A stretch of 64,000 nucleotides of DNA from Comamonas resistens (GTDB lineage Bacteria; Pseudomonadota; Gammaproteobacteria; Burkholderiales; Burkholderiaceae_C): the NCBI RefSeq assembly GCF_030064165.1, contig NZ_CP125947.1, forward strand, positions 3,100,001 to 3,164,000, given 5' to 3'. Both the position numbers and the translations under genes were made by a program. The notes beneath the pieces are model-generated. The model did not search any database. It was not told where the DNA came from and was given only the letters and a program-made list of their open reading frames with translations. Shown piece by piece: positions 18,531-51,313 of this stretch; within the stretch, counting starts at the first letter, position 1; every line of letters starts with the position of its first letter.

Positions 18531-18604
18531 TGTTGATTTCCATGCAAAACTGACCCGCTATTTCCATCTCAAACTGACCCACCCTTTGGCTTGAGCCGTA
18601 AGGC

Positions 18605-19402
18605 TCAAGATGTGGATAAGGTTTTGTTTCTCTCCTTCTTCATGGGCGTTTGTTGGACTGCACTGCTATGCTTGAAGCGGTAGCTGTCATTGCCTGTTTC
18701 CATAATATGGCAGTGGTGGGTCAGGCGGTCCAGCAGGGCCGTGGTCATCTTGGCATCACCAAACACGCTGGCCCATTCGCTAAAGCTCAGGTTAGTGGTG
18801 ATCACCACGCTGGTGCGTTCGTAAAGCGTCGAGAGCAGATGGAACAGTAGCGCACCACCAGATGAGCTGAAGGGCAGATAGCCAAGCTCATCGAGTATCA
18901 CCAGATCCGTATGCACCAGCCTGTGGGCGAGCTGTCCGGCTTTGCCCTGTGCCTTCTCTTGCTCCAGGGCATTAACCAATTCCACGGTAGAGAAGAAGCG
19001 CACCCTTAGGCGGTGGTGCTCGATGGCCTGGATACCCAGCGCCGTAGCGATGTGGGTCTTGCCAGTACCAGGGCCACCGACAAGCACCACATTGTTAGCC
19101 TTCTCGATGAATTCACAGCGGTGAAGGCTGCGCACCAAGGCTTCATTGACTTCGCTGTGGGCAAAGTCAAAGCCCGCCAGATCTCTGTAGACCGGAAACT
19201 TGGCTGCCTTGAGCTGATAGGCAATAGAGCGCACTTCTCGCTCTGCGCTCTCGGCCTTGAGCAGTTGCGACAGTATGGGATGTGCTGCTTCAAATGCTGG
19301 TGAGCCTTGCTCGGCAAGTTCTGTCACGGCCTGGGCCATGCCAAACATCTTGAGCTGCCTGAGCATGATGATGATTGCTGCAATGGCTGGGTCATGACGC
19401 AT
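18605..19402 (-). CDS. istB: IS21 helper ATPase IstB
   Basis: This 265-aa AAA+ ATPase of the DnaC/IstB type has Walker [12 protein letters not shown] (about residues 100-110), Walker [13 protein letters not shown], and the sensor region [12 protein letters not shown]. IstB assembles on DNA and directs the IstA transposase to its target. The ATG at 19402 overlaps the end of istA (19392), the usual translational coupling in the family; an in-frame upstream start would lie deeper inside istA. Confidence 0.93.
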
Positions 19403-20909: not shown

Positions 20910-21026
20910 GTCAATCACTCCTGGTCTCCTGCTGCACAAGAAAGCAGCAGGCTAGGGTTAATGCGTGGGTCAGATTGAGATGGAAAAACCGGGGGCTAGT
21001 GGGTCACTTCTGGGTGGAAATCAACA

Positions 21027-21328
21027 CTGAATACATCAGCCACGCGGTTCGGTATCGTCCGCGCCATTGCAGACGCATGCTGTAACACTTGATAAAGCTG
21101 TTCAAACCCTGTAATTTGCAATGCCCCAGTCATAGAATGAGGATGAAGCAAGGCAAATGCGGAACTCGTTAGCTTGTACCCTCCTGTCGGAGTCAACTCC
21201 ACACATATAAACTCGGGAAAAATGGCCGAGCGTAGTTCCAACTGACCTTTTTCATTAAGCGTTATTTGTCGCTCGAAGCCACAATCAGCAGCGGCTTTTT
21301 CGATACGAATACGTTCTAGTGGTTTCAT
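21027..21328 (-). pseudogene. HNH endonuclease gene, 5' part (split by IS21 element)
   Basis: The start codon and first 100 residues of the interrupted HNH protein are here (MKPLERIRIEKAAADCGFER... MARTIPNRVADVF). This N-terminal region is beta-rich, as in HNH_2 proteins that carry a sensor-like domain before the nuclease. Reading into the IS adds SVDFHPEVTH and a stop. The start ATG overlaps the stop of the upstream 53-codon gene as ATGA, so it belonged to the same operon. Confidence 0.83.
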
Positions 21329-21486
21329 GTGGCATCGTCTAATATTTTCTGAAACTCGTTATGGCCAACGCAAGCTTGGAGAACATAGCTTTCAGTCTTA
21401 AGCAGCCTCTGTCCCATCACAAATCCCACGGCTTTGCACAACCCCTCTAGCCTCGTTGGCATATTCTTTTGGAAAGAGGAAAGCAT
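21325..21486 (-). CDS. Small protein between the SMC-like ATPase and HNH genes
   Basis: This is a 53-codon frame from ATG 21486 (MLSSFQKNMPTRLEGLCKAV... ending EFQKILDDAT). It fills the 190-bp gap between the ATPase stop and the HNH start, and its TGA overlaps the HNH ATG (ATGA), the usual sign of translational coupling. A GTG four codons upstream is an alternative start. It is helical with no signal peptide. I do not recognise the family. The position, between an ATPase and a nuclease, would suit a small linker subunit. Confidence 0.5.
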   Translation of the reverse strand: MLSSFQKNMPTRLEGLCKAVGFVMGQRLLKTESYVLQACVGHNEFQKILDDAT

Positions 21487-21517
21487 GGGTATACGCACCA
21501 ACTGTCACCAAAGTGCA

Positions 21518-23524
21518 TCACGCAGCATTGCCGCCGTCTTTCGAAGCAAACCCAGGCAACTCGACCTCAAGCTTCCTCTTAAAAAGCAACGCTTCATCCT
21601 TTCCTGGTTGAAGTTCCAGCACCAGAAAAGGATCTTTACCCAGCTCCAATGGAGGGGGCGAGGTTGTGGTGACGATGTACTGAAAGGGTACTCCTTCCGA
21701 GGTAGATAGCTGCTTATCGGCTTCGAACGCCGTAGAGAGAAAATTCCGGTACAAAAGCGCACTCATGTCCGCTTCTCGCGGGCAGTCGTGAACGAGGAAG
21801 CCAGGATGGTGGCTTTCAACAGAGGTTGCCGCATCGAGCAAGCAACTCAGGTCGCCCAAAAGTACTTCAAGTACCTGATATGCCTCACCGCCGAGAGCCA
21901 GCTCAAAGGGGCGCTGGTCAGAGTCGTGCACGAAGCGGCCGTGCCCTTCTTCACCAAGCAGCGCGGCCGCTACCATAGACGTAATGACTTTGATTTGCTC
22001 GACACGCGCTGATGCTTGCAGCCGCCGCGTAGCAAGTGCTGCTCTCTTGCCATTAACCTGCTCGGTCAAAGTGCCCTCATGGGTCCGCGCAGAAGTCAAC
22101 GCCTCAGAGCCCTTCCCCTCGGCTCGGAGCGCGTACTGAGCTTGAAACTCTTTCCAATCCGCCGCAAGCGTATCGCGCCCAATCTGGCTCGTGGCAACCC
22201 GCATCCGTAGCCTAGCCACACCAGCTCTTAGCTCTTTTACTCGAGCAACCTGCTTATCCAAGCGTGCCTTAGCGGCCTTCTCATCCTCAGCAGCCTTATT
22301 GAAAGAGGCAAGCCTTACTTGAAGCGAAGCCTGAGCATCCTTAACGTCCATTCGCCCATGCATGCTTACCGTGGACCTGCGACTTAGAACGTAACTGCAA
22401 CTATCGAAATCGACCCTTCCATGCGAACAATGACCTTTCAGACGTGTGAGCTCGTCAATTTCGCCTCTTAGACGCAGTGCATCTTTCTCCCGTGCCTCAT
22501 ACAGCGCCTTGCTCAATTGTGTTTCCAAAATGGACTGTGCACATACCGACCGCAAGTCATTCAGTAAGACCAAATCCGGCTCCATAGCTTGCTCGGCAGC
22601 AAGCGCCTCCGCTTCAATCGTCTGTTCGTTCAACGCTGCACGGCGTAAAGACTCTGCTACCTGGGAAGCTAGGGAATCTTCCACAATGGACTCGAATATC
22701 GGCAACTCCTTGCGAGCACCCACTTTGGTGCGAACTCGCTGCTCCAGTCGGTCCAGCTCCATCGCCGACACCTTCTCCAGAATAGGAATCTGGCTTTTCA
22801 CCTTATTCAACTCCGCATCAAGCTGCTCGGCTTCTTGAAGCAACCTGACCACCTCGACATTCAAAATTCCCAGTACCGAACTCACAAACAGAGGAGGGTC
22901 TACCCGCGAGCGCCTAAACCCCAGACCCTCACCCTCGCGCCAGTGAAAAAATCCATCAAAGCGAGTTCGCTGCTCCCGGACACACCAAGCAAGCAGATGC
23001 CGCCACTCCAAAGGTTGGTTTGTTCCAGGTAGCACTTGCGTGGGGAGGCGGCCAATGAAGCCGCTTTGCAAAGCCTCCAGGTAGTCCTGAAACGGTGTTG
23101 CTCGCGGTTCATCAAACAACTCGTCTAATTGGTTGCCTACCTTGGCCCATGAGGGCGACGATGCACCGAAGGGCCTGAAGACTAGCCAAGAGACACCTTC
23201 AATATGAACTTGAGCCGCCACACCACCTTTGGGGAAATTCGCAGCCGCTTTGGCCCTCAGCGCTGAGATGGCACTGGCGTCGTCTCCCAGCAAATAGCGC
23301 AGTAGAAGACAAAACGAGGTCTTTCCAACTCCATGGCCAGCACTCGCCAGGCCAGAGCCTGAGTTATCGTCCGGCTCTCTGGCCCACACGACGTTTATAC
23401 CTGGCCTCAGAGGAATATCACGAATACAGCACAGAGGCTCGCGGGACTCCAAAATCCAAACCCGCTCTACCCAAAGCCGTGGCAGTGGACGCACTGCCTG
23501 AAGATTCTGAAGTCCTGATTTCAT
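21518..23524 (-). CDS. SMC/RecN-like ABC ATPase of the defence operon
   Basis: This 668-aa protein has a split ABC-type ATPase head. The Walker A GHGVGKTSFCLLLRYLLG is at about residues 63-80. A long coiled-coil insertion follows (about 225-510, e.g. LLQEAEQLDAELNKVKSQIPILEK and AARLDKQVARVKELRAG...). The C-terminal half contains a Walker-B-like hydrophobic strand ending in Asp (HPGFLVHDCPREADMS) and a late strand YIVTTTSPP at the H-loop position. A central CSHG...DSC pair could be a small hook-like or zinc motif. It begins 8 bp after the methyltransferase stop. Such ATPases usually sense or load onto DNA. It is not one of the named DISARM components. Confidence 0.75.
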   Translation of the reverse strand: MKSGLQNLQAVRPLPRLWVERVWILESREPLCCIRDIPLRPGINVVWAREPDDNSGSGLASAGHGVGKTSFCLLLRYLLGDDASAISALRAKAAANFPKGGVAAQVHIEGVSWLVFRPFGASSPSWAKVGNQLDELFDEPRATPFQDYLEALQSGFIGRLPTQVLPGTNQPLEWRHLLAWCVREQRTRFDGFFHWREGEGLGFRRSRVDPPLFVSSVLGILNVEVVRLLQEAEQLDAELNKVKSQIPILEKVSAMELDRLEQRVRTKVGARKELPIFESIVEDSLASQVAESLRRAALNEQTIEAEALAAEQAMEPDLVLLNDLRSVCAQSILETQLSKALYEAREKDALRLRGEIDELTRLKGHCSHGRVDFDSCSYVLSRRSTVSMHGRMDVKDAQASLQVRLASFNKAAEDEKAAKARLDKQVARVKELRAGVARLRMRVATSQIGRDTLAADWKEFQAQYALRAEGKGSEALTSARTHEGTLTEQVNGKRAALATRRLQASARVEQIKVITSMVAAALLGEEGHGRFVHDSDQRPFELALGGEAYQVLEVLLGDLSCLLDAATSVESHHPGFLVHDCPREADMSALLYRNFLSTAFEADKQLSTSEGVPFQYIVTTTSPPPLELGKDPFLVLELQPGKDEALLFKRKLEVELPGFASKDGGNAA

Positions 23525-23532
23525 ACTGTTTC

Positions 23533-26500
23533 TTACCCTCCAAACCTGACCTGTGGGTCATCACCACCGTCTTCGTCCCGCTGCGCGGCGGTAGCAGACC
23601 GATGAACTGAAAGCTTGAGCATCAAACTAGCCAACTCAGGGTGTGACGGCCGAACCAGTACATCGGCGGGAGTCTCACCTAACCCCGCAATGAACACAAC
23701 AGACCCGCCATCCCGCTTGCGCTGCAGCAGTTGTGCCGACTCAAGCCGCAGCACAAATGGTTGAACCAAGTCCAACGTGGAAGTTTGGCTGAGTAGCGGA
23801 AGTGAGCTGCTCAACCCTCTTAGTCGTTGCGCGTCGACTGCATTCAGGTAGCGTCCTGCCAATGCAACATTCACAACAGCATCCTGCAGTTGGTCCACAC
23901 TCATACCGAGCTCGCTGGCTCTGACTAAAGAGAGCAAAAGTCCTGCAAATTCAGCTTCATCCAGAGTCTTGATGACACCTTGCTCAGAGTAAATGGGCGA
24001 CAGCACATCCTCTTCCTCAGCCGTTGACTCTTCCAAGCCCTTCGACAACTTGTCCCAGGCCGCCAGCACCAGCCGCTGTGTTCGGTACTCCCCAAACTCC
24101 TGAATTTCGTTTTTCTTAAGAACGCGGAAAGTTTCGCTAGGGTAGTCCGCGCCCATAACGTCTGCCGGGTCGAGGATGTAGCGCAGCTCGTCGCGGGTGA
24201 GGCCGTATAGGCGGGCGTAGTAGGCGTCGAGTTCGGCGCGCAGTTGAGCGCGGCGCTCGGGATTCCAGGGAAAAGGGGGCAGCGGGGTACCGTGCTGTTC
24301 GGGCGGGCGCGGGTCGGCGCTGGGCATGGCGGCCAGCAGGTCGTCGGCCCAGGCTTGTATGTCGTGGGCTGTGTATGTGAGTTCCAGCACGCGTGGGAGG
24401 ATGAAGGCAAGGTCGGTCTCGCTGTAGTGTTCAGGAGGTAGAACGGCAAACTGCTTGACGTAGTGGTAGGTCAACGACGAGCCACTCACTTTTTGCTTTG
24501 CGATGTAGTCCAGCGGAATGGAATTGATTCCTGCCAGCAGACATGCGTTGAGCGCAGCTGAGTACTTGGCCTCGATGAATAACAGTGGTGTTTTGTGATT
24601 TGCAGCGTATCTAGGGAACACCGATGCCAGTACTGTGCGCTCCGCTGCGGCATTCGTGATATCCCGCCACCCAATCAGCCACCTCGGGCTGCGCCTGTCC
24701 ATCCAGGCGTCCAGCCATTGCAGTTCAAAGTCTTTGCTATCTGAGCCTTGCAGGGCTTGCAGTTGGGCCAGTTCATCTTGACTCAAGCCCTCACCCTGGG
24801 CTGGGTCGTCTTGTCGCGCCCATTTCTGAAACAGCGACAGGGCTTTTTTGCCGGTGGAACCGTCGGCCTTGAGTGCATCGGCCAGCCAACGGTGTTGCTG
24901 CGCCATCTGGGCTTCCACTTTTTGGGTCAGTGCCCAGGCAGTGGCAGCATTGCTCAGACAGGCCAAGGAGGTGCTGGAGCCTGCCGTTGGGTGACTAGCA
25001 GCCACATCATTGTTGGGTGCAGCAAACATGTCCGCCGTGGAGGCCACAAGTTCAGGGACAATGCCTTCGGCCCGCTGTCGCAGCAGCGCACCGGCCACCC
25101 ACTGTGCCACGGCCAGGGTCAATGAAGTGCCGCAAGTGACCATAGCAGCCGCCCGCTCACCGTCTCCGCCGTCATCGACCTGAGCAGCTTCGGTGGCTGT
25201 TTTGAAAGCCAGCCAAGCGTTTGCAACCCTACCGGGCACACGGGCAATACGTGCCAGTACTTCGTACTCCTCCACCCAGTATCGTGGGCGCACGGTGAAT
25301 GCGGGGTCTACTTTCTGTGCCCAAGTAACGTCTTCGATGTCCTGCTCAATGGGGTTGTCTGGGTTGTCTACATAGGTGGCCCAGCGGTGGTCGAACTGGT
25401 GAATCATCTTCGCCTCATACAGCGGCAGGCGCTTGTGCGCCTCGCTGAGGTCTGCATCGGCAGGGCCTGCAGTAAAAAGGTGACTGTCGTTGGACATGTG
25501 AAACATCGTTGAAAAACGAATGCTCCAGGGATTGACCTCAGGTGCGATGAGGCGTGCGTCTTGGCCATCGCCGGACCATTCGGCCTCACGAATGAGCACA
25601 GGTGCGGCGCGATAGAGCTTTTTGGTCAACTCTGCGTCACGTTTGCTACGGAATGTGGGCAAAGTCCGTGTATTGGGATTAAGTAGCCGAAACTCTTCCG
25701 GAAGAAGCTCGTACCACTTTGCGTCTAACACCAGTTCCGCTATTCGATTGACATCAAATATGAACTTAGCGCTTCCCGATGTACCGAGCGTCAAGAGACA
25801 AAACGGTTTACGTTCATCTGTGGCCGGGAACCACTTACGGACCTCATAGAAGCTAATCAACTTCGCTAAACGCCCAGACGAAACTACAGAGCCAAAAAAA
25901 ATCTTTGTGGTGTCATCAGTCGCAATGCCGGTCGGCACGATAAAACCTGCGCGGCCCTGCGGTGTGGTGAGCTGTAATAGGGTTTCAGCAAACAGCGCGT
26001 AGGTGTTGACATCCCCCACGCCAGTCAGCGGGTAACGGCCACTGTCATGGGCATAGAGACTTGCGGCTTCGGCGCCCCGACGGGCGGCGATGAAGTCTTC
26101 GTACAGGCGCATTTCGGCGCGGTTGGGCGGGCTCAGGCCTTCTGCGGCTTCCACGTCTGGGTACAGGGTGTGCAGCAGCAGGCCCTGGCGCAGCAGTTCA
26201 ATGCGCTTGGCTCGTTCGGCCTTGTTTTTGGCGGTGGCTACCAACGGGCTGCGGGTTGCAAAGAATTCCTCTTCTTGCAGCTTGATGCGCTCCCACGGAG
26301 GGTTGCCCAACATGACGGCAAACCCGCCCTTGGCCGCCACCTGCGGAAAGGCCTGCCACCAATGGAACACACTGTGAGCACGGCACAGGTCGTGCGCGGC
26401 TTGGTTCAACTCGAGATTGGCTGGCTGGTTAAGGTTGGGGTGCATCAAGCCCCACAGGTAACCCGACATCGGAATGTGCGCCTGGTTTTGCGGAACCTTG

Positions 26501-28707
26501 GGCGCTAAAAAGGCAGCCACATAAGTATCGGCCAGCTTGGCCAGGGTGCTTTGGGCGGCCTGCTGGTTGGCGTGCGCCCATGCGCTGCGCTTAGTGGCGA
26601 TGCCGTCCAGCGTGTCGTCGGCTAGCTGTTCCACGGCGCTGGCGTCTTGCACCAAGCTGCTGGCGGCAAACAGGTCATTTGCCACAACCTCTTTCCAACT
26701 TTTAAGCTCGGCCTTGTTCTGCTTCTTCAGCGCGGCGGCTGTGGCTTTGTCGTCCCCACTAAGCACAGCGTAGGCTGCGTCGGGGATGCCGTTTTCCAGA
26801 ATCTTGGGGTCCAGCACGCCCAAGAGGGCATCGCCCACTTGCAGGTGGTGGTCGATAAAGGTCAGGGGCCGGTCAGGGGTATAAGCCTCCAGCCATAGCG
26901 CGGTTTTGGCCAGGGCAATGGCCATGGGGTTTTTGTCTACACCATAGATGCAGCGGCTCACCACATCGCGCAGGGCGTGGCGGTAGTCGGCGGGTGTGGG
27001 GGCGCCACCCAGGGCGGCGGCACGCAAATTGGCGACCTCATCGGCCAGGCGGCGGGCAGCAGCCAGCAAAAAGTGTCCACTGCCACAGGCAGGGTCGCAC
27101 ACTGTCAGTTCCAGCAAGGCCTGCACAGGGTTGGCGGGGTGGGCCTGCACGGCGTGCGCAATCACGGGGTCGAGCGCGCTCTGGATGAGCTCTTGTACCA
27201 AGCTATCGGGCGTGTAGTAGCTGCCAGTGAGCTTGCGTGCATTGCCTTTGTTGCTAGCGTCGTCGTCATCGCCCACAAAGGCCAGGCGGGCCGCGTGGGG
27301 CTGGCTGAGGTGCTGGTAGTCGGGCACCAGCTCCAGCAGGCTTTCATACACACTGCCCAGTTCTTCAGCACCCATGTCTCGGTAGTTGACGCGGGTCAAC
27401 CCTGTAGACTGGCGGAAGTAGCCCAGTTGGAAGACGGCGGCCAGCAGGTGGCGGTTGTCTATCTGAGACTGGTTCAGCAATGGGCATTGCTCTTGGGCAA
27501 ACAAGCCGCCCAAGGCGGGCAAGCCCAGCGCGGCTTGGCCGGTGGCCAGCCCACGGAAAGTGATAGACAGGGCTTGCCACAGGTCGCTGTGGGTGTCATG
27601 GCTGCTGCGGCGCACGGAGCGTTCGCGCAGCCAGGTCAGGCTGTAGCCCTGCCAGTAGCGTTCTTCCTGCTCGAATGTGGCGTCGGGCGTAAAGATGAGC
27701 GAGCGGCCCGTGCTGGGGTCTGTGCGGTCTTCCACCGTAGCCAGGAAGATGAAGCGATAGACCAGGCTGAGCAGTTCTTCAAAAAATACCTGTTTGGTGG
27801 CGCTGCTTTGCTCTTGATTTTGTAACTGCTCGCGCAGTCTGGTATTAGCTGGGTGGCTTAAAAAGCCTGTACCTAGGCTGCGCAGGGCATGTTCAACCTG
27901 AAAGCGCAGGTTCATGCGTACGGTCTCGCCGCTTTTCTGGCCCGCGTTGCGCCAGCGCTCCCAAGGGCAGTCGGTGGCTTCTGTGTGTGTGCCGTCCTGC
28001 TGAATTTTGCCAAAGCGCGAGGCATGGGCCAACAACCAGAAAGCGGTGAAGTCGGCGTAAAGCTCTTCGGTGAAGATGGCTTCGAGGTCCACCTCAATAT
28101 AGGCCGGACGGGTCAGGCTGGGGTTGTCTCGCAGGATGCGCAGCTTGAGCCCGTTGCTGGTGATGGCCCACAGGGATTGGTCAGATGCATTCAGCGCCTC
28201 TTGGGCCAACATGTAGGGGCTGCGGCGGCGAGTTCGGCCGGTGTCAGGATTGGTGTCCCCAAAGCGCTCGGCGGCCTGGTCCAGAGGGTGGTCAAAGCCA
28301 GCGAGCACCACGGGCAGGCGGCCGCCGAAGGCGGCGTGGCCGATGTTGAAGGATTGTTGGCTGTTGCCGCTGGCGGACAGGCTGCTTTGTGCCGTCAAGT
28401 CGGCGTAGCCCAGCACTTGGCGCAGCAAAGGCAGCAGCAGGGTTTGCTCCGTGACGCTGTGGGGGTTGGCGTCTTGCCGATGGCGTTGTTGTGCAAAGTC
28501 TTGCCAAAGGTTTTGCGCAATCTTGAAATACCGTGCGATTTCGTCGCGCAGCTTGAGTCCCTTGGGGATGTCATAGTGCACCTCAGTCTGCTCGGTAGCC
28601 TCGGGCGCAGCCAGGGTGGTCAGGCGGGTGAGCTCTTCGGCCGGGATGAGGCCACCCTCAATGCGTAGGGCGGTGTAGGCGAGTTGTTGGGTGGTTTTGC
28701 GAGCCAT
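23533..28707 (-). CDS. Eco57I-type N6-adenine DNA methyltransferase, 1724 aa (DrmMI/PglX-like)
   Basis: This very large methyltransferase has an N-terminal region of about 480 aa (YFKIAQNLWQDFAQQ..., FEELLSLVYRFIFLATVEDR) leading into a gamma-class core: LTGSYYTPDSLVQELIQSAL, motif I VCDPACGSGHFLLAA (about residue 540), GVDKNPMAIALAKTALWLE and catalytic motif IV GNPPWERIK (about 804). The remaining 900 residues should recognise target DNA. No clear nuclease motif is seen in it. The ATG at 28707 overlaps the upstream helicase stop region (TGACCATGG). It probably marks host DNA for a DISARM/BREX-like system. Confidence 0.88.
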   Translation of the reverse strand: MARKTTQQLAYTALRIEGGLIPAEELTRLTTLAAPEATEQTEVHYDIPKGLKLRDEIARYFKIAQNLWQDFAQQRHRQDANPHSVTEQTLLLPLLRQVLGYADLTAQSSLSASGNSQQSFNIGHAAFGGRLPVVLAGFDHPLDQAAERFGDTNPDTGRTRRRSPYMLAQEALNASDQSLWAITSNGLKLRILRDNPSLTRPAYIEVDLEAIFTEELYADFTAFWLLAHASRFGKIQQDGTHTEATDCPWERWRNAGQKSGETVRMNLRFQVEHALRSLGTGFLSHPANTRLREQLQNQEQSSATKQVFFEELLSLVYRFIFLATVEDRTDPSTGRSLIFTPDATFEQEERYWQGYSLTWLRERSVRRSSHDTHSDLWQALSITFRGLATGQAALGLPALGGLFAQEQCPLLNQSQIDNRHLLAAVFQLGYFRQSTGLTRVNYRDMGAEELGSVYESLLELVPDYQHLSQPHAARLAFVGDDDDASNKGNARKLTGSYYTPDSLVQELIQSALDPVIAHAVQAHPANPVQALLELTVCDPACGSGHFLLAAARRLADEVANLRAAALGGAPTPADYRHALRDVVSRCIYGVDKNPMAIALAKTALWLEAYTPDRPLTFIDHHLQVGDALLGVLDPKILENGIPDAAYAVLSGDDKATAAALKKQNKAELKSWKEVVANDLFAASSLVQDASAVEQLADDTLDGIATKRSAWAHANQQAAQSTLAKLADTYVAAFLAPKVPQNQAHIPMSGYLWGLMHPNLNQPANLELNQAAHDLCRAHSVFHWWQAFPQVAAKGGFAVMLGNPPWERIKLQEEEFFATRSPLVATAKNKAERAKRIELLRQGLLLHTLYPDVEAAEGLSPPNRAEMRLYEDFIAARRGAEAASLYAHDSGRYPLTGVGDVNTYALFAETLLQLTTPQGRAGFIVPTGIATDDTTKIFFGSVVSSGRLAKLISFYEVRKWFPATDERKPFCLLTLGTSGSAKFIFDVNRIAELVLDAKWYELLPEEFRLLNPNTRTLPTFRSKRDAELTKKLYRAAPVLIREAEWSGDGQDARLIAPEVNPWSIRFSTMFHMSNDSHLFTAGPADADLSEAHKRLPLYEAKMIHQFDHRWATYVDNPDNPIEQDIEDVTWAQKVDPAFTVRPRYWVEEYEVLARIARVPGRVANAWLAFKTATEAAQVDDGGDGERAAAMVTCGTSLTLAVAQWVAGALLRQRAEGIVPELVASTADMFAAPNNDVAASHPTAGSSTSLACLSNAATAWALTQKVEAQMAQQHRWLADALKADGSTGKKALSLFQKWARQDDPAQGEGLSQDELAQLQALQGSDSKDFELQWLDAWMDRRSPRWLIGWRDITNAAAERTVLASVFPRYAANHKTPLLFIEAKYSAALNACLLAGINSIPLDYIAKQKVSGSSLTYHYVKQFAVLPPEHYSETDLAFILPRVLELTYTAHDIQAWADDLLAAMPSADPRPPEQHGTPLPPFPWNPERRAQLRAELDAYYARLYGLTRDELRYILDPADVMGADYPSETFRVLKKNEIQEFGEYRTQRLVLAAWDKLSKGLEESTAEEEDVLSPIYSEQGVIKTLDEAEFAGLLLSLVRASELGMSVDQLQDAVVNVALAGRYLNAVDAQRLRGLSSSLPLLSQTSTLDLVQPFVLRLESAQLLQRKRDGGSVVFIAGLGETPADVLVRPSHPELASLMLKLSVHRSATAAQRDEDGGDDPQVRFGG

Positions 28708-28709
28708 GG

Positions 28710-31544
28710 TCAAGCCTCCACCATAGCTGGGACCAGCACGTAAACGCCCATCACATCCACCGGCAAGCTGGCGGTGACCTGGTAGCTACCGCGGGCTTCG
28801 GCAGCTTCGCGCACGCGGCGGTGGTCGGCCAGCAGGCTGTGGGCCCGGTCTTGTGCAATGGCTTCCAGCGAGGGCTGCCAGGTTGGCAATTGGTCCAGGG
28901 CTTGCTGGATGTGACGGTCTCGAATCACAGGGGGCATGTTGCGGCTGGCCTGGGCGCCTAGGAATTCGCGGGCTTGTGGCAAGGGAAGTTCGGTCAAAGG
29001 CTCGGTACCAGCGACGCTGACGGCCACGGTTTCTTCACAGAGCATTAGTCGGGTATTGTTATCGCGGGTGATGCTGAGCTGGTGGCGCAGGCGCAGCAGC
29101 AGCACGGTGGTTTTGAGGGTGACGTTGCCGACAAAGGCAGCGCCAGCACGGGCCACGCCGTCAGCATCTGCATTCTGGCTGTCCAGGGCCTGCCCGAGCA
29201 GGGTGTCTGCCAAAGCGACGACCAGTGGGTGGGTACGCTGGATAAAGATGGAACCTTGGGCGGAAGGTTGCTGAAAGTCAATGCGCAAGGTGCCACTCAG
29301 GCCTTCGGCGGCTAAACGCTCCCTCAAGGCTTGGGGCAAGGCTTCCAGTGGTGCCTTGAAGTGGTTTTTATAGGGTTCGAGGCCCGCTCCCAACTTGACC
29401 ATGGCCCGGCTTACAAAACGCTGCACATCGTCTTCGTTGCCGAGTGCGGCGGCGGATTTTCGCCACTCCGGCAGTACGTCATCGGGTTTAAGGCGGCGCT
29501 GGGCAAAGATGGAGCGGTTTTTGGCGGCCTTCTCGCGTGCGCTTTGCCAAGCGGTCTCAATCTGCTGGGCGGGCTCGCCAAAGTCGAAGCCAATTTGGGC
29601 TTGTTTGCCCAGTGCGTTGTGCTTGCGCAGCAGCACGGCGTTGAGCAGGGCCTGGGTGAGCTTGCCTTCATCGTCAGGCATGGGCACCAGCACGCCCAGT
29701 TCTTTGCGGATGCTTTCTGCCTTGCGCAGAATCACCTGCAGCACGGCACCGTCCACAGGGTTGTCCTCGCCGTAGAGCATGGTGCTGCGCACTTTTTTTG
29801 CTTGCTGTCCAAAGCGGTCCACGCGGCCTTCACGCTGTTCGTGGCGGGTGGGGTTCCAGCTCAGGTCGTAATGGACCACGGCGGTAAACAGGCTTTGAAG
29901 GTTGATACCTTCAGACAGGCAGTCCGTGGCAACCAAAATGCGTAGCTCTGTGTCACCCAGCTCGGCCACAGCGGCTTCACGCTCACCGGGAGTGAGTTCG
30001 CCGGTCACTGCTTTGACGGTGGCTTTCTTGAACTTGCCGCGCAGGTACTCAGCCAGGTAGTGGGCAGTAGCGATATAGCGGCAGAACACCACGGGCTTGA
30101 AGCCTTCTTCCACCAGGGCTTGCAGGTGGGTGGTCAGCTTGGCCAGCTTGGGGTCGTTGGCGGCACCAGCCAAATTTTCAGCGGCGGCGATGAGGTCCTG
30201 CAGGTGTGCGGTGTCTTCGGTCTGGGCTGCGGGCTCAATGTCATCGGTGGACAGTGCGTCGTCCAGGCCATCCATGACGCGCTCGCTGGCCTGGGCTTCG
30301 AGCTCTTCGAGCGAGAGTTCCGCGCCCTCTTCTCCTACACACTGCCCACCTTTGAGGCGGGTGCGCAGAGCGTTCACAGCAGCTGCCGGCGACGAGGAAA
30401 TACAGCGCAACAAGGCCAGGGCGGCCCACCAGTTCATGCGCTGTTCGCGTTGCCCCTTGCCTTCGGAGCTCACGACCAGCTCGCGGGCGTAGTCCAGCAC
30501 GTCGTTAAACAGCCGCCCCCAGGCACCGGTCAGCTTGTAGGTGATCTCCGCCGTCTCGCGGTCGGGAAACATGCTGGCGTCTTGCCACTCGGCAATGTCT
30601 GGGCGGCGGCGCTGGACAAAGTGGCGCGACAGGTCTTCACGCAGGTCGGTACGGGCGCCGACGGGCAGGTCTTTGAGCTGGGTGAAATCTTTGCGCAGCA
30701 GGCCCAACAGGTTGAAGAAGGCGCCTTCGTCACCGCTGTGGGGGGTGGCAGTCAGCAGAACCATGTGGCGCTGGTGGTTTTCTGCCAAGCCCTTCAGGAG
30801 TTGGAAGCGTTGCTGGCGGCCTTGACCGCCCTGGGTGCAGGTGTGGGCTTCGTCCACGATGACGAATTCGGGGCAAAACCGCTGGAAGGCTTCGCGCCGA
30901 CGTTCAGACTTGATGTAGTCCAGGCTGACGACGGTGAAGGGAAGAGCGTCAAACACCGAGGTGCCGGGCGGCAGGTCACGCTCGAGCCGGTTAGCGCTGG
31001 CGCTGCGCACCACCACGGCCTGAATGTGGAAACGGTCCTCCAGCTCGCGCTGCCACTGCTCGCACAGGTGCGGCGGACACAGCACGGCCATGCGGTGGAT
31101 TTCGCCGCGGTCGAGCATCTCGCGAGCAATCAATGCGCCTTCAATGGTTTTACCGATACCTACGTCGTCGGCAATCAGCAGGCGCACAGTGGGCTGCTTC
31201 ATGGCCATCAGCAGTGGCACCAGCTGATAGGCACGCGGCTCCACGGCAATGTTGCCAAAGCTGCGGAACGGGCCGGCCCCGCTGCGCAGCTTGAGCTGCA
31301 GGGCATCCATCAGCAGTTGGCTGGCAGAGTGGTTGCGCGCCTGGGTCACCACAGGCCACGGGAAAGTAGCGGGGCCAACGGGTTGTTGCTCCAGTGGCAA
31401 GTAGATGAGCGATTCGTCTTTTTCACCACCGCCCAAGGGGCGCAGGCGCAAGGTATCGGCCGTGGATTCGGGCAGCACTATCCATTCGCGGCCACGGGCC
31501 GATACGAGACTGCCGGGGTAAAACTCGGCGACAGGAGTGTTCAT
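28710..31544 (-). CDS. drmD: SNF2-family helicase, DrmD-like
   Basis: This 944-aa SF2 helicase has Walker A DDVGIGKTIEGALIAREM (about residues 126-143), motif II VIVDEAH (about 229-234), TATPHSG, and a helicase C-domain with ATDCLSEGINLQ and HEQREGRVDRFGQ. The N-terminal module (YPGSLVSARGREWIVLP) and overall length match the SNF2-like helicase of class 1 DISARM. It starts 2 bp after the stop of the DUF1998-type helicase and ends 2 bp before the methyltransferase ATG, so the three are translated together. The in-frame start further upstream would overlap the preceding gene by about 60 bp. Confidence 0.88.
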   Translation of the reverse strand: MNTPVAEFYPGSLVSARGREWIVLPESTADTLRLRPLGGGEKDESLIYLPLEQQPVGPATFPWPVVTQARNHSASQLLMDALQLKLRSGAGPFRSFGNIAVEPRAYQLVPLLMAMKQPTVRLLIADDVGIGKTIEGALIAREMLDRGEIHRMAVLCPPHLCEQWQRELEDRFHIQAVVVRSASANRLERDLPPGTSVFDALPFTVVSLDYIKSERRREAFQRFCPEFVIVDEAHTCTQGGQGRQQRFQLLKGLAENHQRHMVLLTATPHSGDEGAFFNLLGLLRKDFTQLKDLPVGARTDLREDLSRHFVQRRRPDIAEWQDASMFPDRETAEITYKLTGAWGRLFNDVLDYARELVVSSEGKGQREQRMNWWAALALLRCISSSPAAAVNALRTRLKGGQCVGEEGAELSLEELEAQASERVMDGLDDALSTDDIEPAAQTEDTAHLQDLIAAAENLAGAANDPKLAKLTTHLQALVEEGFKPVVFCRYIATAHYLAEYLRGKFKKATVKAVTGELTPGEREAAVAELGDTELRILVATDCLSEGINLQSLFTAVVHYDLSWNPTRHEQREGRVDRFGQQAKKVRSTMLYGEDNPVDGAVLQVILRKAESIRKELGVLVPMPDDEGKLTQALLNAVLLRKHNALGKQAQIGFDFGEPAQQIETAWQSAREKAAKNRSIFAQRRLKPDDVLPEWRKSAAALGNEDDVQRFVSRAMVKLGAGLEPYKNHFKAPLEALPQALRERLAAEGLSGTLRIDFQQPSAQGSIFIQRTHPLVVALADTLLGQALDSQNADADGVARAGAAFVGNVTLKTTVLLLRLRHQLSITRDNNTRLMLCEETVAVSVAGTEPLTELPLPQAREFLGAQASRNMPPVIRDRHIQQALDQLPTWQPSLEAIAQDRAHSLLADHRRVREAAEARGSYQVTASLPVDVMGVYVLVPAMVEA

Positions 31545-31546
31545 AT

Positions 31547-34500
31547 TCAGTGTTTCTGAGCAGGCCCAAACAGGTCTGCATTGGCCGCGAAAATAGCGGG
31601 CCACTGGTTTTGTTCTTTGGGAAAGCGGACGACTATAAAACCTAAGTCTTCCAGCTTGCGGTTGGTCTGAGCATCCTTGGCTCGTTGACTCTCAATGTCG
31701 TGGTGAGGGCCATCAATAAAAACCGCTAGGTTGTAGTCATCGTAGAAAAAATCTGCGCTCACGCCTACAGCCGTTAACGTGTGCTGGGCACGGTCTGGCT
31801 TGAGGTAGCCGTGCTCTTCCATGTGGGAGAGCCAGACTTTCTCCAGCGAGCTGGAGGACATGCGCTCCAGCTCCGCGCTGTGCTGCTCAGGCGCACGACC
31901 TTGAGAGCCTCGGGCTGAAGTGGATTCTGTCAACCGGCAGAGGATATCAAGCAACTGCCCTCCGGCCTTCTTATCTTGCCGGTCAATGAGAGGATGGTCT
32001 GGCTGGTTGTAGTAGGAAAGCAGGCAGCGGTAGCAACCGGCCTCGCAGAGGGGGTGGTCATGCTCGTCCACCTCCTGGGTAAGTTCGGACTTTTTCCAGG
32101 CCTCACCTTCATCATCCGGCATTTGAAAGTGCATGATGCGCAGTGCTTCTGCCGCTACCGTGCGCAGAGCCTGGGGCTCGGTGGCAATACGGGTGAGTAC
32201 CCCGGCTCCACCTTCAGCCGCCTCGAAGAACAGGATGGATTGGCGGTTGTCACGCCCAGGCAGCGGTTCTGCCACGAGTTCGCTCTCTTCTAACTGGTAC
32301 ACCGCCTCGATGCCACGCTTCAAAGCGTACTGCAGCGTAGTCATGGTCGTTTCTTCCAGCACACCCAAGCGGTGATGCGGCATCACGACCAGGATGTTGC
32401 GGCGGTCTTCCACGAAGGGAACGATGCGCTGTGGGGGCGTCTTGTCTGGCGGCGCTTCGTCCCCTTCGCCGTCTCCCGCTTCGTTCTCTCCGCCGACCCA
32501 GTGACCCGTGACGGGGTTAATCATGAAGCCCAGCACCTTCTTGTCCTTGCGTCGCTTCCAGCCGTAGTTCATGCGCCAAATGGTGGCAGCCGGACCGTAT
32601 TGGAGTTCCAGCAAGGGGCCCTGCTCGTCAGAGACGACGGACGTCACCATCTGCAGCTTGCCGTCTGCCTGAGCGAACTGCAGGGTGGTCTGCATTTCGT
32701 ACCCTTGGCGCACGCGCTCCTCTTCGTTAGCAGTGATGCGCTCGGCCCGCTTGGTGGAGACGTTTTCGATGCGGTAGAGGTGTTTAACCTCCTCGGCACC
32801 ATCCAGAGAGGCATCGCAGGACACACAGCGGTCTGCATCACGCTGGGTGCGGAAGTGGCCGTAGCCACACATGGGGCACAGGCGCGCCACTTCGGTGGGC
32901 AGTTTGGCTCCATCGGCTACTTGGTCTTGTCCACCAATGGTCAGCAGCGCTTTGGTCACCCGGTACTGACTGCCTTCGTGATAGATAAGGCTGTAGGGCC
33001 CAAATTCGCTCAAGGCCAGGAAACGAGGGCGCGACAGGAAGCTTTCCCTCCCGATATTGCCTCGGCGGGCCGGAATGTACGCCATCAAAGGAAGGCGCGG
33101 GAAGTTGTAGCCGGGCAGGAAGCCCTGGCTGGCCAAGTAGCGGTAGGTGTAGAAGTCACTGTTGAAAGCGCTGTCACCAGCTAACAGCAGGTCTCGCTGC
33201 TTGCGCGCCTCGTTGTGGCGCTGTTGGGCCTCTCGGCGTTCACGTTCGCTGGCTGACGGGTTGTTTTCTTTCTTGTAGTTGAGCTCGATGGCCTGCGCAG
33301 TGGCCTGGTAGAGGTCACGCCAGCGGTTCAGAGCGCTATCGAATTCCTTAAACGCCCTCTGAAACACAGATTCTGACCACGTCGGCGTGAACCAGGGAGC
33401 CCGCTCGGGCGTGAGCTCGTCTTTGAGCATGCCCAGCACTGCCAGGCCACGCTCATGAGCCTTGCGTTGGGCAGTGGGCTTGGAGAGCTCATCGGCCAAG
33501 TCAGTGGTGAGCGGCAAGTCCTGCGGCTTTTCCATATCGAGTAGGTCACGAATGCTGTTGCCCAGCTTCTTGCCCGTCTCGGCCAGCCAAATGGCCTGCA
33601 GGTGGCTTTGCACCAGTTCGCGGTTGGCCAGGTCTAGCGTTGGTGCATTGACCTGACCGTGCACCATGCGGACCGGGTCGCGGAAGTAGTACTGGTCGTG
33701 CGGGGACTGACTGGCGCAGTATGTAATGACCAGAGCTGGCTGCCCCGCGCGGCCTGCCCGACCACTGCGCTGAGCGTAATTGGCCGGCGTAGGCGGTACG
33801 TTGCGCATGTACACGGTGTTGAGCGAGGAGATATCCACCCCCAACTCCATCGTGGGAGAGCAGAACAGCACGGGGAGCCACTCGAGGTCGTGGCCGTGCT
33901 TCTCACGCCATTCTTCACGGTCTTTATCAGTGAACCGGAAGCGGGCTTCACGCTCCATACGGTCGTCTTGCTCAACCTGGGCCGTGTGCTCACGGGCCTC
34001 GAAATCGAACAAGCGATGCGCAGGCTCGCTCAACAGCTTCGCGATGTTACGGTACAGGTTGCGGAAAAACGCATTTTCGTGGGCCTGACGGCTTGCGCTG
34101 CCGTTTCCGGCCTGCCATAGCATTGCACTGCCATTGAGCTGCCAGCCAGTCAGCCCAAAGTCTGTTTCTTCCTTACGGACTAGGCCATAACTCTCAGCAG
34201 CTTTGAGCAAGGCCCCCACCACATCGCCATAGGTGGCATCCTTAATTTCCTTATAGAACGGATTGCTTCCACCCCAGGTACTGCCTCTTTTGAATTCTTT
34301 GCCCAAGCGGGAGCGGCTGGAGCCAATGACCAAATACTCTTCAAGCTTTTGCCGCTTGATGCGCGCGTTGTTGTCGTCCTTGGGGCGACTGGTAACAAAC
34401 CACTTGGCAGGTACCGGGCGCTCGTCCTCCGTGAAGCCCCAGGGTTCACACAGATTGGCAAAGCTCACCGTGCGAAGCTGGTCCAGCTCTGTGCGGTCCA

Positions 34501-36874
34501 GGTAGCGGGAGGCGACGCACAAGCCTTCACGCATGAATCCGAAAAGCAAGCTCAGCACATGAGCTCGCTCTGCAGGCCTCGCAGCCCGAAGGACCTGAGG
34601 TGCTTCGCTCCACTCCTGCTCGTCGGCTGCAAGGTCATCGATGTCCTGGTACTGGATTTGCATCAAGCCCAGTTGTTCCAGGTTGGGATTATTGAAGCGC
34701 CACCCTTTGCGTAGGTCGTAAAACGCCCGATACCCCAGGATAGAACGCATGGCGTCTTGCACCTGACGGCGGCTGTTGCCCTTGACCTCAGGCTGTTGCA
34801 TGTACTCTGCACGCACCGCGTAGTCGTCACGGTGAAACCCGAGGGCCTCAAACACCGCATTCGCGATGTCTTTTTCAGATAGTGTTTGTTGCGGCGCACC
34901 CTCCAGAGCCGAGAACAAAGCCGCACGGGTCAACAAGACTTGAAGGAAATCGTTGAAGTGCCCAGCCTGTAGGGCCGCGTCTTGGCGGTTGTCCGAGAAG
35001 CCCAGTACCTTTTTGGCCTCAGGGGAGAGCTCCTGGTCTTGCTCGTACAGGTAACGCAGTGAGGCCAAGGTCAACATAGTGGTCGCTGAGCTTCGGCCCT
35101 CACCAGACAGTGAAGTCAACCTCAACGAGTCTTTGCCATTGCTGGTGTGGGTCACACCGCAAGAAAGACAGAAGCGAAAGCTTCCAGGGATGAACCATGC
35201 AGACAAGCCACCATCGTGGGTCAAAACACCATCTGAACGTACCTTGACGGCTTGCGGAATGTATTTCTTCTGAGTGGGCTTGACGCGCCACTCTCCGTCA
35301 GCGCGCTCTTCCACCCAGGTTTCTGGGTAGCTTTCTGGGTCAGCCTCATCCCAAACACCAGAAACATCCGGCATCAGGTAGCCGGCCTTGACGCCGTCGT
35401 CCTCGTGTTCACGCTCCTCGATGCTGCGAACCGAGAAGGTTCGCCCTTCGACTGCATCCTGGTCCCACACCGGGATGTACTCTTGACCACAGTCGCGGCA
35501 AAAGTGGACGTTGTAGAGGTGGCGGCTGCGGTCGCCGGAAACGAATTGCTGACCATCCAAAGTCACGGTTCGTTGACCTGGCGCCTCGAGCGAGGAGAAG
35601 ACCTTGCCACCACCTGAGATGAACTGGTGCAGTTTGAAGGCAAACAACGACTTGCCTGATGGGTCGGTGACGTTATAAGCTCGAAGAAGGAAGCGTTGCA
35701 AATAGTCGCTGCATTGCTCTTTTTCCAGACCCGACGCCTTAGCCAGCAACTCGGCGGCAAGGTTCAAAGTTTTGGGTTTTGCGCGGCGGGGCTTCCCACT
35801 CTCATAAGTCAAACCCAGTGTCAGCTCGACCCAAATAGACACTGGGTGCTGCGCCATGGCGGGGAAATCGAGAGTTTGCGGCACTCCCGCTTGAATGGCT
35901 GCGGCCAAGCGGGGGGTGATGGTCTCGAGCGTTTCGGTCTCAGGTGTGGTGCGTTTGAGGGTTTCGGTGATGATATTGGTCACCGGAATCTGGGTGCCGA
36001 ACAAGCGGCTGGCTACCTCCGCGACTTTGGCGTTGCGCTCGACCTCAGTGCCGTCGGTCGCCATAGTGGCTGATGTTCCGATACAGACCAACTGATCAGC
36101 CAAGGCCTCACGGACGCGGCGCACCAACAGCGCCACATCAGCACCCTGGCGTCCTCGATAGGTGTGCAACTCATCAAGTACCAGGAACTTCAAACCCTTG
36201 GCATTAGCAATTACCTGTTGGTCAATCGCGTTCTGCCGCGTCAGTAACAACTCCAGCATCATGAAGTTGGTCAGCAGGATGTCTGGTGGGTTGGCTTTCA
36301 TTGCCTCCCGCTCTTCCGTGCTTTCTTGTCCAGTAAAACGACCAAACGTCACTGAGCGCGCATCAGGTTCGGCTCCCAAGAATTTCTTCAGTTCTTCAAG
36401 CTGGCTGTTCGCCAACGCATTCATGGGATAGACAACAATGGCGCGGGTACGCTTAGCCTCATCGTTGGCCTTAGCCTTCAAGCAGTAGTCAATGATGGGA
36501 ATAAAGTAAGAAAGCGATTTTCCTGAACCCGTGCCCGTAGTTAGCACATAGCTTTCACCAGACGAGGCGAGACTGATGGCTTCAACTTGGTGCTTGTAGA
36601 GTGGCAAGGTCAGTCCGGCAGATGATGCTGTCTTCCCAAAACGGAAAATCTGCGCGCATGATGAGCTCAGTTGCTGTCCATCACATAGCTCCTCAACAGT
36701 CCCGCCAGGCCGAAAGTTGGGATTGACCTGAATCAATGGCTCAGGCCAATATTTCTGGGAGGCGTACTCTGCGTCGACAAAGGCCCTAATATCATCGGCC
36801 TTGATCCGCGTGAAGCTGCGCGTGAACTGGGCATACTCGTTGACCAAATTTTGGCGGAAGTCAAAGACGTTCAA
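31547..36874 (-). CDS. DEAD-type helicase with DUF1998-like region and C-terminal Vsr/PD-(D/E)xK-like segment
   Basis: This 1775-aa protein is the first gene of the operon. The helicase has Walker A TTGTGSGKSLSYFIPI (about residues 112-127), motif II LVLDELHTYRG (about 232) and motif VI TPANYAQRSGRAGRAGQPAL. Cysteine pairs in HFCRDCGQEY, FCLSCGVTH and LCPMCGYGHF/CVSCDAS look like zinc sites. The DUF1998-like part ends with LCEAGCYRCLLSYYNQPDHPLIDRQ. The last 100 aa (LEKVWLSHMEEHGYLKP... AVGVSADFFYDDYNLAVFIDGPHHD...IVVRFPK) resemble Vsr/DUF559 nucleases. It therefore looks like DISARM DrmA and DrmB in one chain. TTG 36874 is chosen as start because GGGAG lies upstream and homologous proteins begin with the NVFDFR-type helix; an ATG at 36907 lacks an RBS. 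Confidence 0.85.
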   Translation of the reverse strand: MNVFDFRQNLVNEYAQFTRSFTRIKADDIRAFVDAEYASQKYWPEPLIQVNPNFRPGGTVEELCDGQQLSSSCAQIFRFGKTASSAGLTLPLYKHQVEAISLASSGESYVLTTGTGSGKSLSYFIPIIDYCLKAKANDEAKRTRAIVVYPMNALANSQLEELKKFLGAEPDARSVTFGRFTGQESTEEREAMKANPPDILLTNFMMLELLLTRQNAIDQQVIANAKGLKFLVLDELHTYRGRQGADVALLVRRVREALADQLVCIGTSATMATDGTEVERNAKVAEVASRLFGTQIPVTNIITETLKRTTPETETLETITPRLAAAIQAGVPQTLDFPAMAQHPVSIWVELTLGLTYESGKPRRAKPKTLNLAAELLAKASGLEKEQCSDYLQRFLLRAYNVTDPSGKSLFAFKLHQFISGGGKVFSSLEAPGQRTVTLDGQQFVSGDRSRHLYNVHFCRDCGQEYIPVWDQDAVEGRTFSVRSIEEREHEDDGVKAGYLMPDVSGVWDEADPESYPETWVEERADGEWRVKPTQKKYIPQAVKVRSDGVLTHDGGLSAWFIPGSFRFCLSCGVTHTSNGKDSLRLTSLSGEGRSSATTMLTLASLRYLYEQDQELSPEAKKVLGFSDNRQDAALQAGHFNDFLQVLLTRAALFSALEGAPQQTLSEKDIANAVFEALGFHRDDYAVRAEYMQQPEVKGNSRRQVQDAMRSILGYRAFYDLRKGWRFNNPNLEQLGLMQIQYQDIDDLAADEQEWSEAPQVLRAARPAERAHVLSLLFGFMREGLCVASRYLDRTELDQLRTVSFANLCEPWGFTEDERPVPAKWFVTSRPKDDNNARIKRQKLEEYLVIGSSRSRLGKEFKRGSTWGGSNPFYKEIKDATYGDVVGALLKAAESYGLVRKEETDFGLTGWQLNGSAMLWQAGNGSASRQAHENAFFRNLYRNIAKLLSEPAHRLFDFEAREHTAQVEQDDRMEREARFRFTDKDREEWREKHGHDLEWLPVLFCSPTMELGVDISSLNTVYMRNVPPTPANYAQRSGRAGRAGQPALVITYCASQSPHDQYYFRDPVRMVHGQVNAPTLDLANRELVQSHLQAIWLAETGKKLGNSIRDLLDMEKPQDLPLTTDLADELSKPTAQRKAHERGLAVLGMLKDELTPERAPWFTPTWSESVFQRAFKEFDSALNRWRDLYQATAQAIELNYKKENNPSASERERREAQQRHNEARKQRDLLLAGDSAFNSDFYTYRYLASQGFLPGYNFPRLPLMAYIPARRGNIGRESFLSRPRFLALSEFGPYSLIYHEGSQYRVTKALLTIGGQDQVADGAKLPTEVARLCPMCGYGHFRTQRDADRCVSCDASLDGAEEVKHLYRIENVSTKRAERITANEEERVRQGYEMQTTLQFAQADGKLQMVTSVVSDEQGPLLELQYGPAATIWRMNYGWKRRKDKKVLGFMINPVTGHWVGGENEAGDGEGDEAPPDKTPPQRIVPFVEDRRNILVVMPHHRLGVLEETTMTTLQYALKRGIEAVYQLEESELVAEPLPGRDNRQSILFFEAAEGGAGVLTRIATEPQALRTVAAEALRIMHFQMPDDEGEAWKKSELTQEVDEHDHPLCEAGCYRCLLSYYNQPDHPLIDRQDKKAGGQLLDILCRLTESTSARGSQGRAPEQHSAELERMSSSSLEKVWLSHMEEHGYLKPDRAQHTLTAVGVSADFFYDDYNLAVFIDGPHHDIESQRAKDAQTNRKLEDLGFIVVRFPKEQNQWPAIFAANADLFGPAQKH

Positions 36875-39311: not shown

Positions 39312-39375
39312 TGCCGCTCTTGCGCCCACGCCGGTGATGTGAAGTCAGCGCCGCTTTTACTTTCTTGATCTCTCG

Positions 39376-40613: not shown

Positions 40614-40618
40614 CTGGC

Positions 40619-51312: not shown

Positions 51313-51313
51313 C

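What the first reader, a model, noticed from the sequence alone, without database searches (positions are those of the whole stretch)
21325..36874. DISARM-like operon with fused helicase-DUF1998, nuclease-like tail and extra ATPase/HNH genes
Seen: a tight leftward operon (2 bp, 2 bp, 8 bp gaps, then an ATGA overlap) of a 1775-aa DEAD helicase/DUF1998-like protein with a C-terminal Vsr/PD-(D/E)xK-like segment, a 944-aa SNF2 helicase, a 1724-aa Eco57I-type methyltransferase, a 668-aa SMC-like ATPase, a 53-aa protein and an HNH protein. Known: class 1 DISARM has DrmD (SNF2), DrmMI (adenine methylase), DrmA (helicase), DrmB (DUF1998) and DrmC (PLD). Inferred: DrmA and DrmB are fused here, PLD is absent, and a nuclease-like tail plus an ATPase/HNH branch may replace or extend its role. 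This combination could be an undescribed DISARM relative.
Basis: partly seen in the sequence, partly recalled or inferred. Interest (0 to 1): 0.88.

Follow-up and report, generated by a model that had tools for sequence, protein, structure and literature searches.

The report
ARMADA defence operon with Rad50-like ATPase
A bacterial anti-phage operon, carried on a mobile island and already described in outline as ARMADA Type I, turns out in many relatives to carry an extra DNA-sensing-type ATPase and an end-marking nuclease gene, with whole other defence systems swapped in and out between the two.

Summary
In detail: a tight minus-strand operon. It is not a DISARM variant. Its first three genes are ARMADA Type I (Bell et al. 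2025 preprint): YprA-like helicase with DUF1998 and a Vsr/DUF559-like tail, SNF2 helicase, PglX-like methyltransferase.

The rest I found in no paper searched. The 668-aa protein is a Rad50/SMC-like ABC ATPase with a hook cysteine pair. It directly follows the methyltransferase in 24 of 25 loci found with it. In 398 genomes of the window's phylum, all 8 with a strong ATPase hit are among the 13 with the ARMADA SNF2. It is absent from 5 of 13 assessable ARMADA I loci. The methyltransferase has an extra C-terminal tail of 161-220 aa in 39 of 39 ATPase-bearing loci, 0-12 aa in 5 of 5 lacking it.

An HNH gene follows in 30 of 36 assessable loci. The slot between them is filled in 16 of 29 loci, 15 with known or candidate defence genes (DRT1, GmrSD, Mokosh, PDC-S39 and others).

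In the window an IS21 element splits the HNH gene and the 53-aa ORF is probably debris. The operon sits in a 32.7-kb tRNA-Thr island.

The parts
31547..36874 (-). ARMADA I YprA-like helicase (1775 aa): DEAD, Helicase_C, DUF1998/MZB
   Evidence: 53-55% identical over nearly the full length to three homologues followed by the SNF2 gene
31613..31765 (-). C-terminal DUF559/Vsr-like nuclease segment of the helicase
   Evidence: Pfam DUF559 E 7.7e-5; conserved D/H pattern
28710..31544 (-). SNF2/BrxHII-like helicase (944 aa)
23533..28707 (-). PglX/Eco57I-like adenine methyltransferase (1724 aa); SAM motif and NPPW
24364..26736 (-). probable specificity region of the methyltransferase, by position
   Evidence: region differing between two near-identical Polaromonas operons; inferred for the window
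23536..24045 (-). C-terminal 170-aa tail of the methyltransferase, proposed ATPase-coupling domain
   Evidence: 161-220 aa in 39/39 ATPase+ loci, 0-12 aa in 5/5 ATPase- loci
21518..23524 (-). Rad50/SMC-like ABC ATPase (668 aa); Walker A GHGVGKT, hook cysteines C366/C376, Walker B HDCPRE
21325..21486 (-). 53-aa ORF in the cargo slot, probably debris
21034..21328 (-). N-terminal part of the HNH gene (its ORF runs on to 20996)
   Evidence: matches A2 profile positions 1-101
18531..21026 (-). IS21-family element inside the HNH gene (istA 19392-20939, istB 18605-19453)
18106..18523 (-). C-terminal part of the HNH gene, with the HNH domain
16601..16676 (+). tRNA-Thr, integration site
16632..16677 (.). 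46-bp att repeat, left copy
49299..49344 (.). 46-bp att repeat, right copy
16837..17937 (+). tyrosine integrase of the island
37278..38270 (-). second tyrosine recombinase, upstream of the operon

Best explanation
The locus is an ARMADA Type I anti-phage operon in an extended form: YprA-Vsr helicase, SNF2 helicase, PglX-like methyltransferase, Rad50-like ABC ATPase, [exchangeable defence slot], HNH nuclease. Proposed working: the methyltransferase marks host adenines at a site set by its swappable specificity region. The two helicases attack DNA that lacks the mark, and the Vsr-like tail cuts it. The Rad50-like ATPase, docked on the methyltransferase through the matching C-terminal tail, senses DNA ends or replication structures and licenses the attack. 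The HNH nuclease is a linked second cutter. Shown: gene content, conservation, co-occurrence, tail/ATPase concordance, a swapped methyltransferase region, slot contents. Inferred: that the methyltransferase marks a site, docking, sensing, licensing, and HNH acting with the ATPase. In the window the four core genes are open and full-length and the HNH gene is broken.
For: ARMADA I gene order and Vsr-type tail as published against the window. ATPase-first scan: 24 of 25 loci have YprA (its C-terminal part lies in the 10-kb flank), SNF2, MTase and ATPase in order; the 25th is a YprA/ATPase fusion ORF. Plasmids: 7 of 8 have the trio, the 8th only the last 72 aa of the MTase. Same 398 genomes: 8 strong ATPase genomes, all within the 13 SNF2-positive ones (E <= 1e-100), hypergeometric 8.8e-14, or 2.7e-12 without the own genome. 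Tail 161-220 aa in 39/39 ATPase+ against 0-12 aa in 5/5 ATPase- loci; the ATPase label needs 3 changes on the SNF2 tree. Hook cysteines 14/14 and 25/25; Walker-B Glu position is Cys or Ser in 14/14. L006 against L022: SNF2, ATPase, HNH and YprA part 97-99% identical overall, MTase 84%; in MTase residues about 661-1440, 8 of 13 60-residue windows are 46-67% and 5 are 77-97%, before that 87-99%. HNH on the same strand in 29/29 loci that have both genes.
Against: ATPase missing in 5 of 13 assessable ARMADA I loci, so the trio can probably work without it. HNH missing in 6 of 36 assessable ATPase+ loci and present without ATPase in L075. ATPase distances follow SNF2 less well (r 0.54) than MTase does (r 0.92), so ATPase alleles seem to be exchanged. 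One ATPase relative follows a Type III-like Mod/Res pair instead. In some loci extra ORFs lie between SNF2 and MTase (e.g. L024, L025, G516). Tails of the alpha, beta and gamma clades are not joined by profile comparison. No structure model; no experiment on Type I is known to me.
Confidence: 0.72

Rival explanations
1. ATPase plus HNH is an independent defence pair (Septu- or Lamassu-like) that merely sits downstream of ARMADA, as cargo.
For: The ATPase has LmuB-like size, hook and Walker B (review passages); PADLOC LmuB hit E 7.9e-11; HNH starts within 300 bp of the ATPase end in 13 of 29 loci. Septu is recalled, from no call.
Against: In 398 genomes no strong ATPase hit falls in a genome without the ARMADA SNF2; the MTase tail tracks the ATPase; the one ATPase+HNH pair without the trio (L107) keeps an MTase stub, so it is a decayed ARMADA; HNH can be absent.
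Confidence: 0.2
2. A DISARM subtype with fused DrmAB and a replaced DrmC.
For: SNF2 and MTase are DrmD- and DrmMI-like.
Against: DISARM cut-offs not met; helicase is nearest DruE models; the described ARMADA I fits order, fusion and Vsr tail.
Confidence: 0.04
3. The ATPase-HNH slot is no special place: defence genes pile up anywhere in such islands.
For: Defence islands are generally rich in such genes; Zorya lies beyond HNH in L014. The control is small and looks at one ORF per locus, while the slot test counts any gene in the slot.
Against: 15 of 16 filled slots hold known or candidate defence genes, against 1 of 10 first ORFs of at least 290 aa beyond HNH; GmrSD fragments in L018 and L023 and, read by eye, a scar in L008.
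Confidence: 0.2

Closest known systems
ARMADA Type I (Bell et al. 2025 preprint, PMC12458937)
   Same: YprA helicase first, then BrxHII-like SNF2, then PglX-like methyltransferase; C-terminal Vsr-type nuclease; the authors also place ARMADA islands on tRNA-integrated elements
   Different: The parts read (1-4 of 8, legends, word searches) name no ABC/SMC ATPase, HNH gene, methyltransferase tail or cargo slot; figures and supplement not seen
ARMADA Type II
   Same: Same three protein families, plus an extra fourth protein
   Different: Order is SNF2-MTase-YprA-ArmD (RelE-GajB-like helicase); the window has YprA first and no ArmD-like gene among the ORFs scanned
Class 1 DISARM
   Same: SNF2 and methyltransferase homologues
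   Different: DrmA/DrmB split, PLD DrmC, DISARM cut-offs missed
Lamassu / ABC-3C (LmuB)
   Same: ATPase about 650 aa with zinc-hook cysteines and a substituted Walker-B Glu (passages)
   Different: No LmuA-type effector seen; middle component at best replaced by the MTase tail; LmuB model also rings in 14 of 14 control genomes
BREX with auxiliary or backup effectors (PMC12839542, abstract and passages)
   Same: Methyltransferase-helicase system with HNH, GmrSD and OLD-ABC genes added to the locus
   Different: No PglZ/BrxC among the ORFs scanned here; the added genes lie in one fixed slot between ATPase and HNH

Membership tests
ARMADA Type I | YprA, then BrxHII-like SNF2, then PglX-like MTase, in this order | tested here: met
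ARMADA Type I | C-terminal Vsr-type nuclease on the YprA protein | tested here: met
   DUF559 hit E 7.7e-5, above its curated cut-off, and conserved residues; fold not modelled
ARMADA Type I | YprA falls in the Type I clade of the published tree | not tested
   reference sequences not fetched; only an SNF2 tree was built
ARMADA Type I | BrxA-like and zinc-binding inserts in the helicase | tested here: inconclusive
ARMADA Type II | SNF2-MTase-YprA order with ArmD (RelE-GajB) at the end | tested here: not met
   order differs; no such gene among the ORFs scanned in the operon and its flanks
DISARM | split DrmA/DrmB and a PLD DrmC; NCBIfam cut-offs | tested here: not met
Druantia III | DruH beside DruE | tested here: not met
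   no DruH among the families shown for the 13 ORFs scanned (lists of the three largest capped at 25); DruE1 314 bits, best stretch partial
Dpd | 7-deazapurine genes; NCBIfam DpdE cut-off 500 | tested here: not met
   214.7 bits and no Dpd synthesis genes among the scanned ORFs. Against this, PADLOC DpdE model PDLC02853 scores 710 bits
Lamassu/ABC-3C | LmuB-type ATPase with hook and substituted Walker B | tested here: inconclusive
   features present, but the LmuB model is not specific
Lamassu/ABC-3C | separate small middle component and LmuA effector | tested here: not met
   gene before the ATPase is the MTase in 24 of 25 loci; tail shows no similarity to the two Priestia middle-position proteins

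The most novel reading that the evidence does not exclude
Tail plus Rad50-like ATPase (often plus HNH) is a transferable sensor module, of ABC-3C/Lamassu kind, that restriction-type systems acquire by fusing a coupling tail to the last upstream protein: the methyltransferase in ARMADA I, a Type III Res helicase in one Magnetococcales MAG. The ATPase-HNH interval then serves as a dedicated landing slot where whole defence systems are loaded and swapped under one operon.
Probability: 0.4. Interest if true: 0.78.

Novelty: new variant of a known kind. Interest (0 to 1): 0.6.

Why it matters
It points to a conserved extra component of ARMADA Type I that I found in no paper searched. It gives a simple predictor (methyltransferase tail present means ATPase present) and a ready test of whether an SMC/Rad50-like sensor can be bolted onto restriction-type systems. 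The slot gives a way to find new defence genes: read what lies between this ATPase and its HNH gene. The swapped methyltransferase region suggests these systems change their target site without changing their machinery.

Tried and rejected
DISARM, Dpd, Druantia and Type II ARMADA were rejected as labels (see membership test). The idea that the 53-aa ORF is a conserved middle component was dropped: no match to sampled cargo, one doubtful plasmid hit (E 0.3), only weak hits in 3 of 299 other order-level genomes (best E 0.0019), and a frame difference from its one relative. The MTase tail was compared with the PDB (best E 0.2) and with two stand-alone Priestia proteins, without result. A last protein search for other proteins carrying the Type III Res tail found only itself. 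PDB searches with the ATPase gave only coiled-coil matches, some of them SMC proteins. Viral contigs and phage records gave no ATPase relative. The paper searches returned nothing. No empty island site was shown: five relatives' sequences behind the tRNA match the window no further than the tRNA/att stretch.
Full report
WHAT IS THERE. The operon is as described: tightly spaced minus-strand ORFs without internal stops. Pfam finds DEAD, Helicase_C, MZB (DUF1998) and, weakly, DUF559 in the first protein; SNF2 and Helicase_C in the second; Eco57I/N6_Mtase in the third; nothing in the fourth. The best PADLOC models are DruE for the first, DpdE and DrmD for the second, DrmMI for the third, and LmuB (39.8 bits) for the fourth. 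No DISARM or Dpd NCBIfam cut-off is reached.

ARMADA TYPE I. Bell et al. (PMC12458937; I read parts 1-4 of 8 of the main text, the figure legends and word searches; not the figures or supplement) define ARMADA Type I as a YprA homologue, then a BrxHII-like helicase, then a PglX-like methyltransferase, with a C-terminal Vsr-type nuclease on the helicase. The window fits. Type II, the one they tested, protects without killing the cell. Library searches with the word ARMADA listed that preprint; of the others that hold the word and concern phage defence, I saw passages of PMC13192584 and only the listing of PMC12904381.

THE ATPASE BELONGS TO THE SYSTEM. A scan of genome contigs with an ATPase alignment gave 25 loci. 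In 24 the ATPase directly follows the MTase, with SNF2 and the part of YprA that lies within the 10-kb flank upstream, all on one strand; the other, L030, is an ORF that joins YprA and ATPase parts, followed by HNH. Of 8 plasmid records, 7 have the trio and one (L107) keeps only the last 72 aa of the methyltransferase. In one sample of 398 genomes of the window's phylum (Pseudomonadota, inferred from named relatives), the SNF2 search rang in 13 at E <= 1e-100 and the ATPase search rang strongly in 8, all of them among the 13 (hypergeometric 8.8e-14, or 2.7e-12 without the own genome). Two weak ATPase hits remain: G549 is a remnant (SNF2 fragment, ATPase end, HNH) and G524 shows no ARMADA gene on its contig. 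Starting from YprA or SNF2, 13 loci show the region after the MTase. The ATPase is there in 8 (G594, G698, L043, L068, L069, L070 shortened, L076 split, and L150 of G503 cut by the contig end) and absent in 5 (G431, G516, L040, L042, L075). The other hits end at contig edges, show no SNF2 or MTase, or were not fetched (G268; contig C275 of G503). On the SNF2 tree of 46 rows the ATPase occurs on deep branches and the label needs 3 changes; the root is a midpoint and some long branches are unsure. None of 36 other same-genus and 24 same-order genomes has the ATPase.

THE ATPASE ITSELF. Pfam gives nothing for the window protein and a weak DUF2326 match (best E 4.8e-5) for 7 of 14 relatives. The Walker-A lysine and a cysteine pair in the middle of the coiled-coil region are invariant in 14 of 14 and 25 of 25 sequences; the pair reads CPxC, as in a Rad50 zinc hook, in 6 of the 14 (L043 and the five plasmid forms aligned). 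The Walker-B Asp is followed by Cys or Ser, not Glu, in 14 of 14. A review (PMC10586767, passages only) describes LmuB of Lamassu in the same terms: about 650 aa, hook CPxCG, Walker-B Glu substituted. I do not claim membership, because the LmuB model also rings in 14 of 14 control genomes, presumably on SMC-type proteins.

THE METHYLTRANSFERASE TAIL. Counted from the alignment column of the block that ends in AWDRL, the methyltransferase carries 161-220 more residues in 39 of 39 ATPase-bearing loci and 0-12 in 5 of 5 ATPase-free ones (Fisher 9.2e-7, not corrected for kinship; L107 and L150 were not in this count). In some distant rows (such as L102 and L105) the block itself is hardly recognisable. 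G574 has a second ATPase copy behind a Type III-like Mod/Res pair, and the C-terminus of that Res helicase is 34% identical to the gamma-clade tail over 175 aa. This is one case only (which also names the source as a Magnetococcales MAG). Profile comparison did not join the alpha, beta and gamma tails beyond the methyltransferase stub, so a common origin of all tails is inference.

SPECIFICITY SWAP. Two Polaromonas operons (L006, L022) are 97-99% identical in SNF2, ATPase, HNH, the DRT1 part and the part of YprA compared, but 84% in the methyltransferase. The difference lies mostly in residues about 661-1440, where 8 of 13 60-residue windows are 46-67% alike and 5 are 77-97%; windows before it are 87-99% and those after it 85-90%. 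This fits an exchanged target-recognition region.

THE HNH END AND THE SLOT. With the window there are 40 ATPase loci. HNH follows on the same strand in 30; it is absent in 6 with about 5 kb or more in view (L009, L019, G594, L043, L102, L105); 4 cannot be judged (L007, L068, L069, L070). The HNH domain is common elsewhere (26 of 369 genomes), but no match outside the window began before profile position 67, so the N-terminal part of this family was seen only in the window in that sample. The nearest solved HNH domain is 6yex (E 7e-23), which I recall as VcaM4I. Among 29 loci with both genes (window not counted), 13 gaps are under 300 bp and 16 are longer. Of those 16, 15 carry known or candidate defence genes: DRT1 in 8 (interrupted in L006 and L029), GmrSD-family in 6, PDC-S39 in 3, and single cases of Mokosh MkoA/MkoB, HEC-03B, an NsnA-like protein and, by Pfam, RES/HEPN. 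Representatives were scanned (all PADLOC hits named here have E <= 1e-28); the others were assigned by BLAST clusters. L027 has none. Scanned slot ORFs without a family: one each in L018, L024, L027 and L029; not every small slot ORF was scanned. As a control, the first ORF of at least 290 aa beyond HNH was a defence gene (E <= 1e-10) in 1 of 10 loci examined, of 21 HNH loci in that set; this looks at one ORF per locus, so the comparison is rough. GmrSD fragments lie in L018 and L023, and L008 shows by eye what looks like another. ORFs were called mechanically, so small genes are uncertain.

THE WINDOW COPY. Here the slot holds only the 53-aa ORF. Its one relative (P0125) reads its first part in another frame. 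An IS21 element with a 7-bp duplication splits the HNH gene. The whole lies between 46-bp repeats at tRNA-Thr, 32.7 kb apart, with an integrase beside the tRNA. Four same-genus genomes (G019, G002, G016, G008) have a partial second copy of the tRNA end 3.8-45 kb away, as if other elements sat there.

MECHANISM. From relatives: DruE, the YprA-family helicase of Druantia III, loads on 3' single-stranded DNA (PMC13192584, passages), and ARMADA II needs all four of its genes. Inferred here: marking by the methyltransferase, attack by the helicases and Vsr tail, and sensing by the docked Rad50-like ATPase, with HNH as auxiliary cutter.

Noticed in passing
window 49345-58661: A second, shorter element may lie behind the first: in relative G019 similarity resumes at window 58604/59280 right after the att site.
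   Followed up: partly
window 44358-45506: Rolling-circle-type replication initiator (Phage_CRI/G2P-like) inside the island, suggesting a satellite-like element.
   Followed up: no
window 38616-42258: Four ORFs between recombinase and replication gene without any Pfam or PHROG match.
   Followed up: no
L151 70-8015: Type III-like Mod/Res pair followed by a relative of the ATPase, in a Magnetococcales MAG.
   Followed up: partly
L102 19600-22368: Mu-type transposase, TniB and TniQ genes after the ARMADA ATPase on a Paraburkholderia plasmid.
   Followed up: no
L030 8831-10474: ORF joining a YprA part to an ATPase C-terminus, followed by HNH; deletion or misassembly.
   Followed up: no
G000:C1:2670513-2672174: A second SNF2-type helicase in the window's genome, 33% identical to the ARMADA one.
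   Followed up: no
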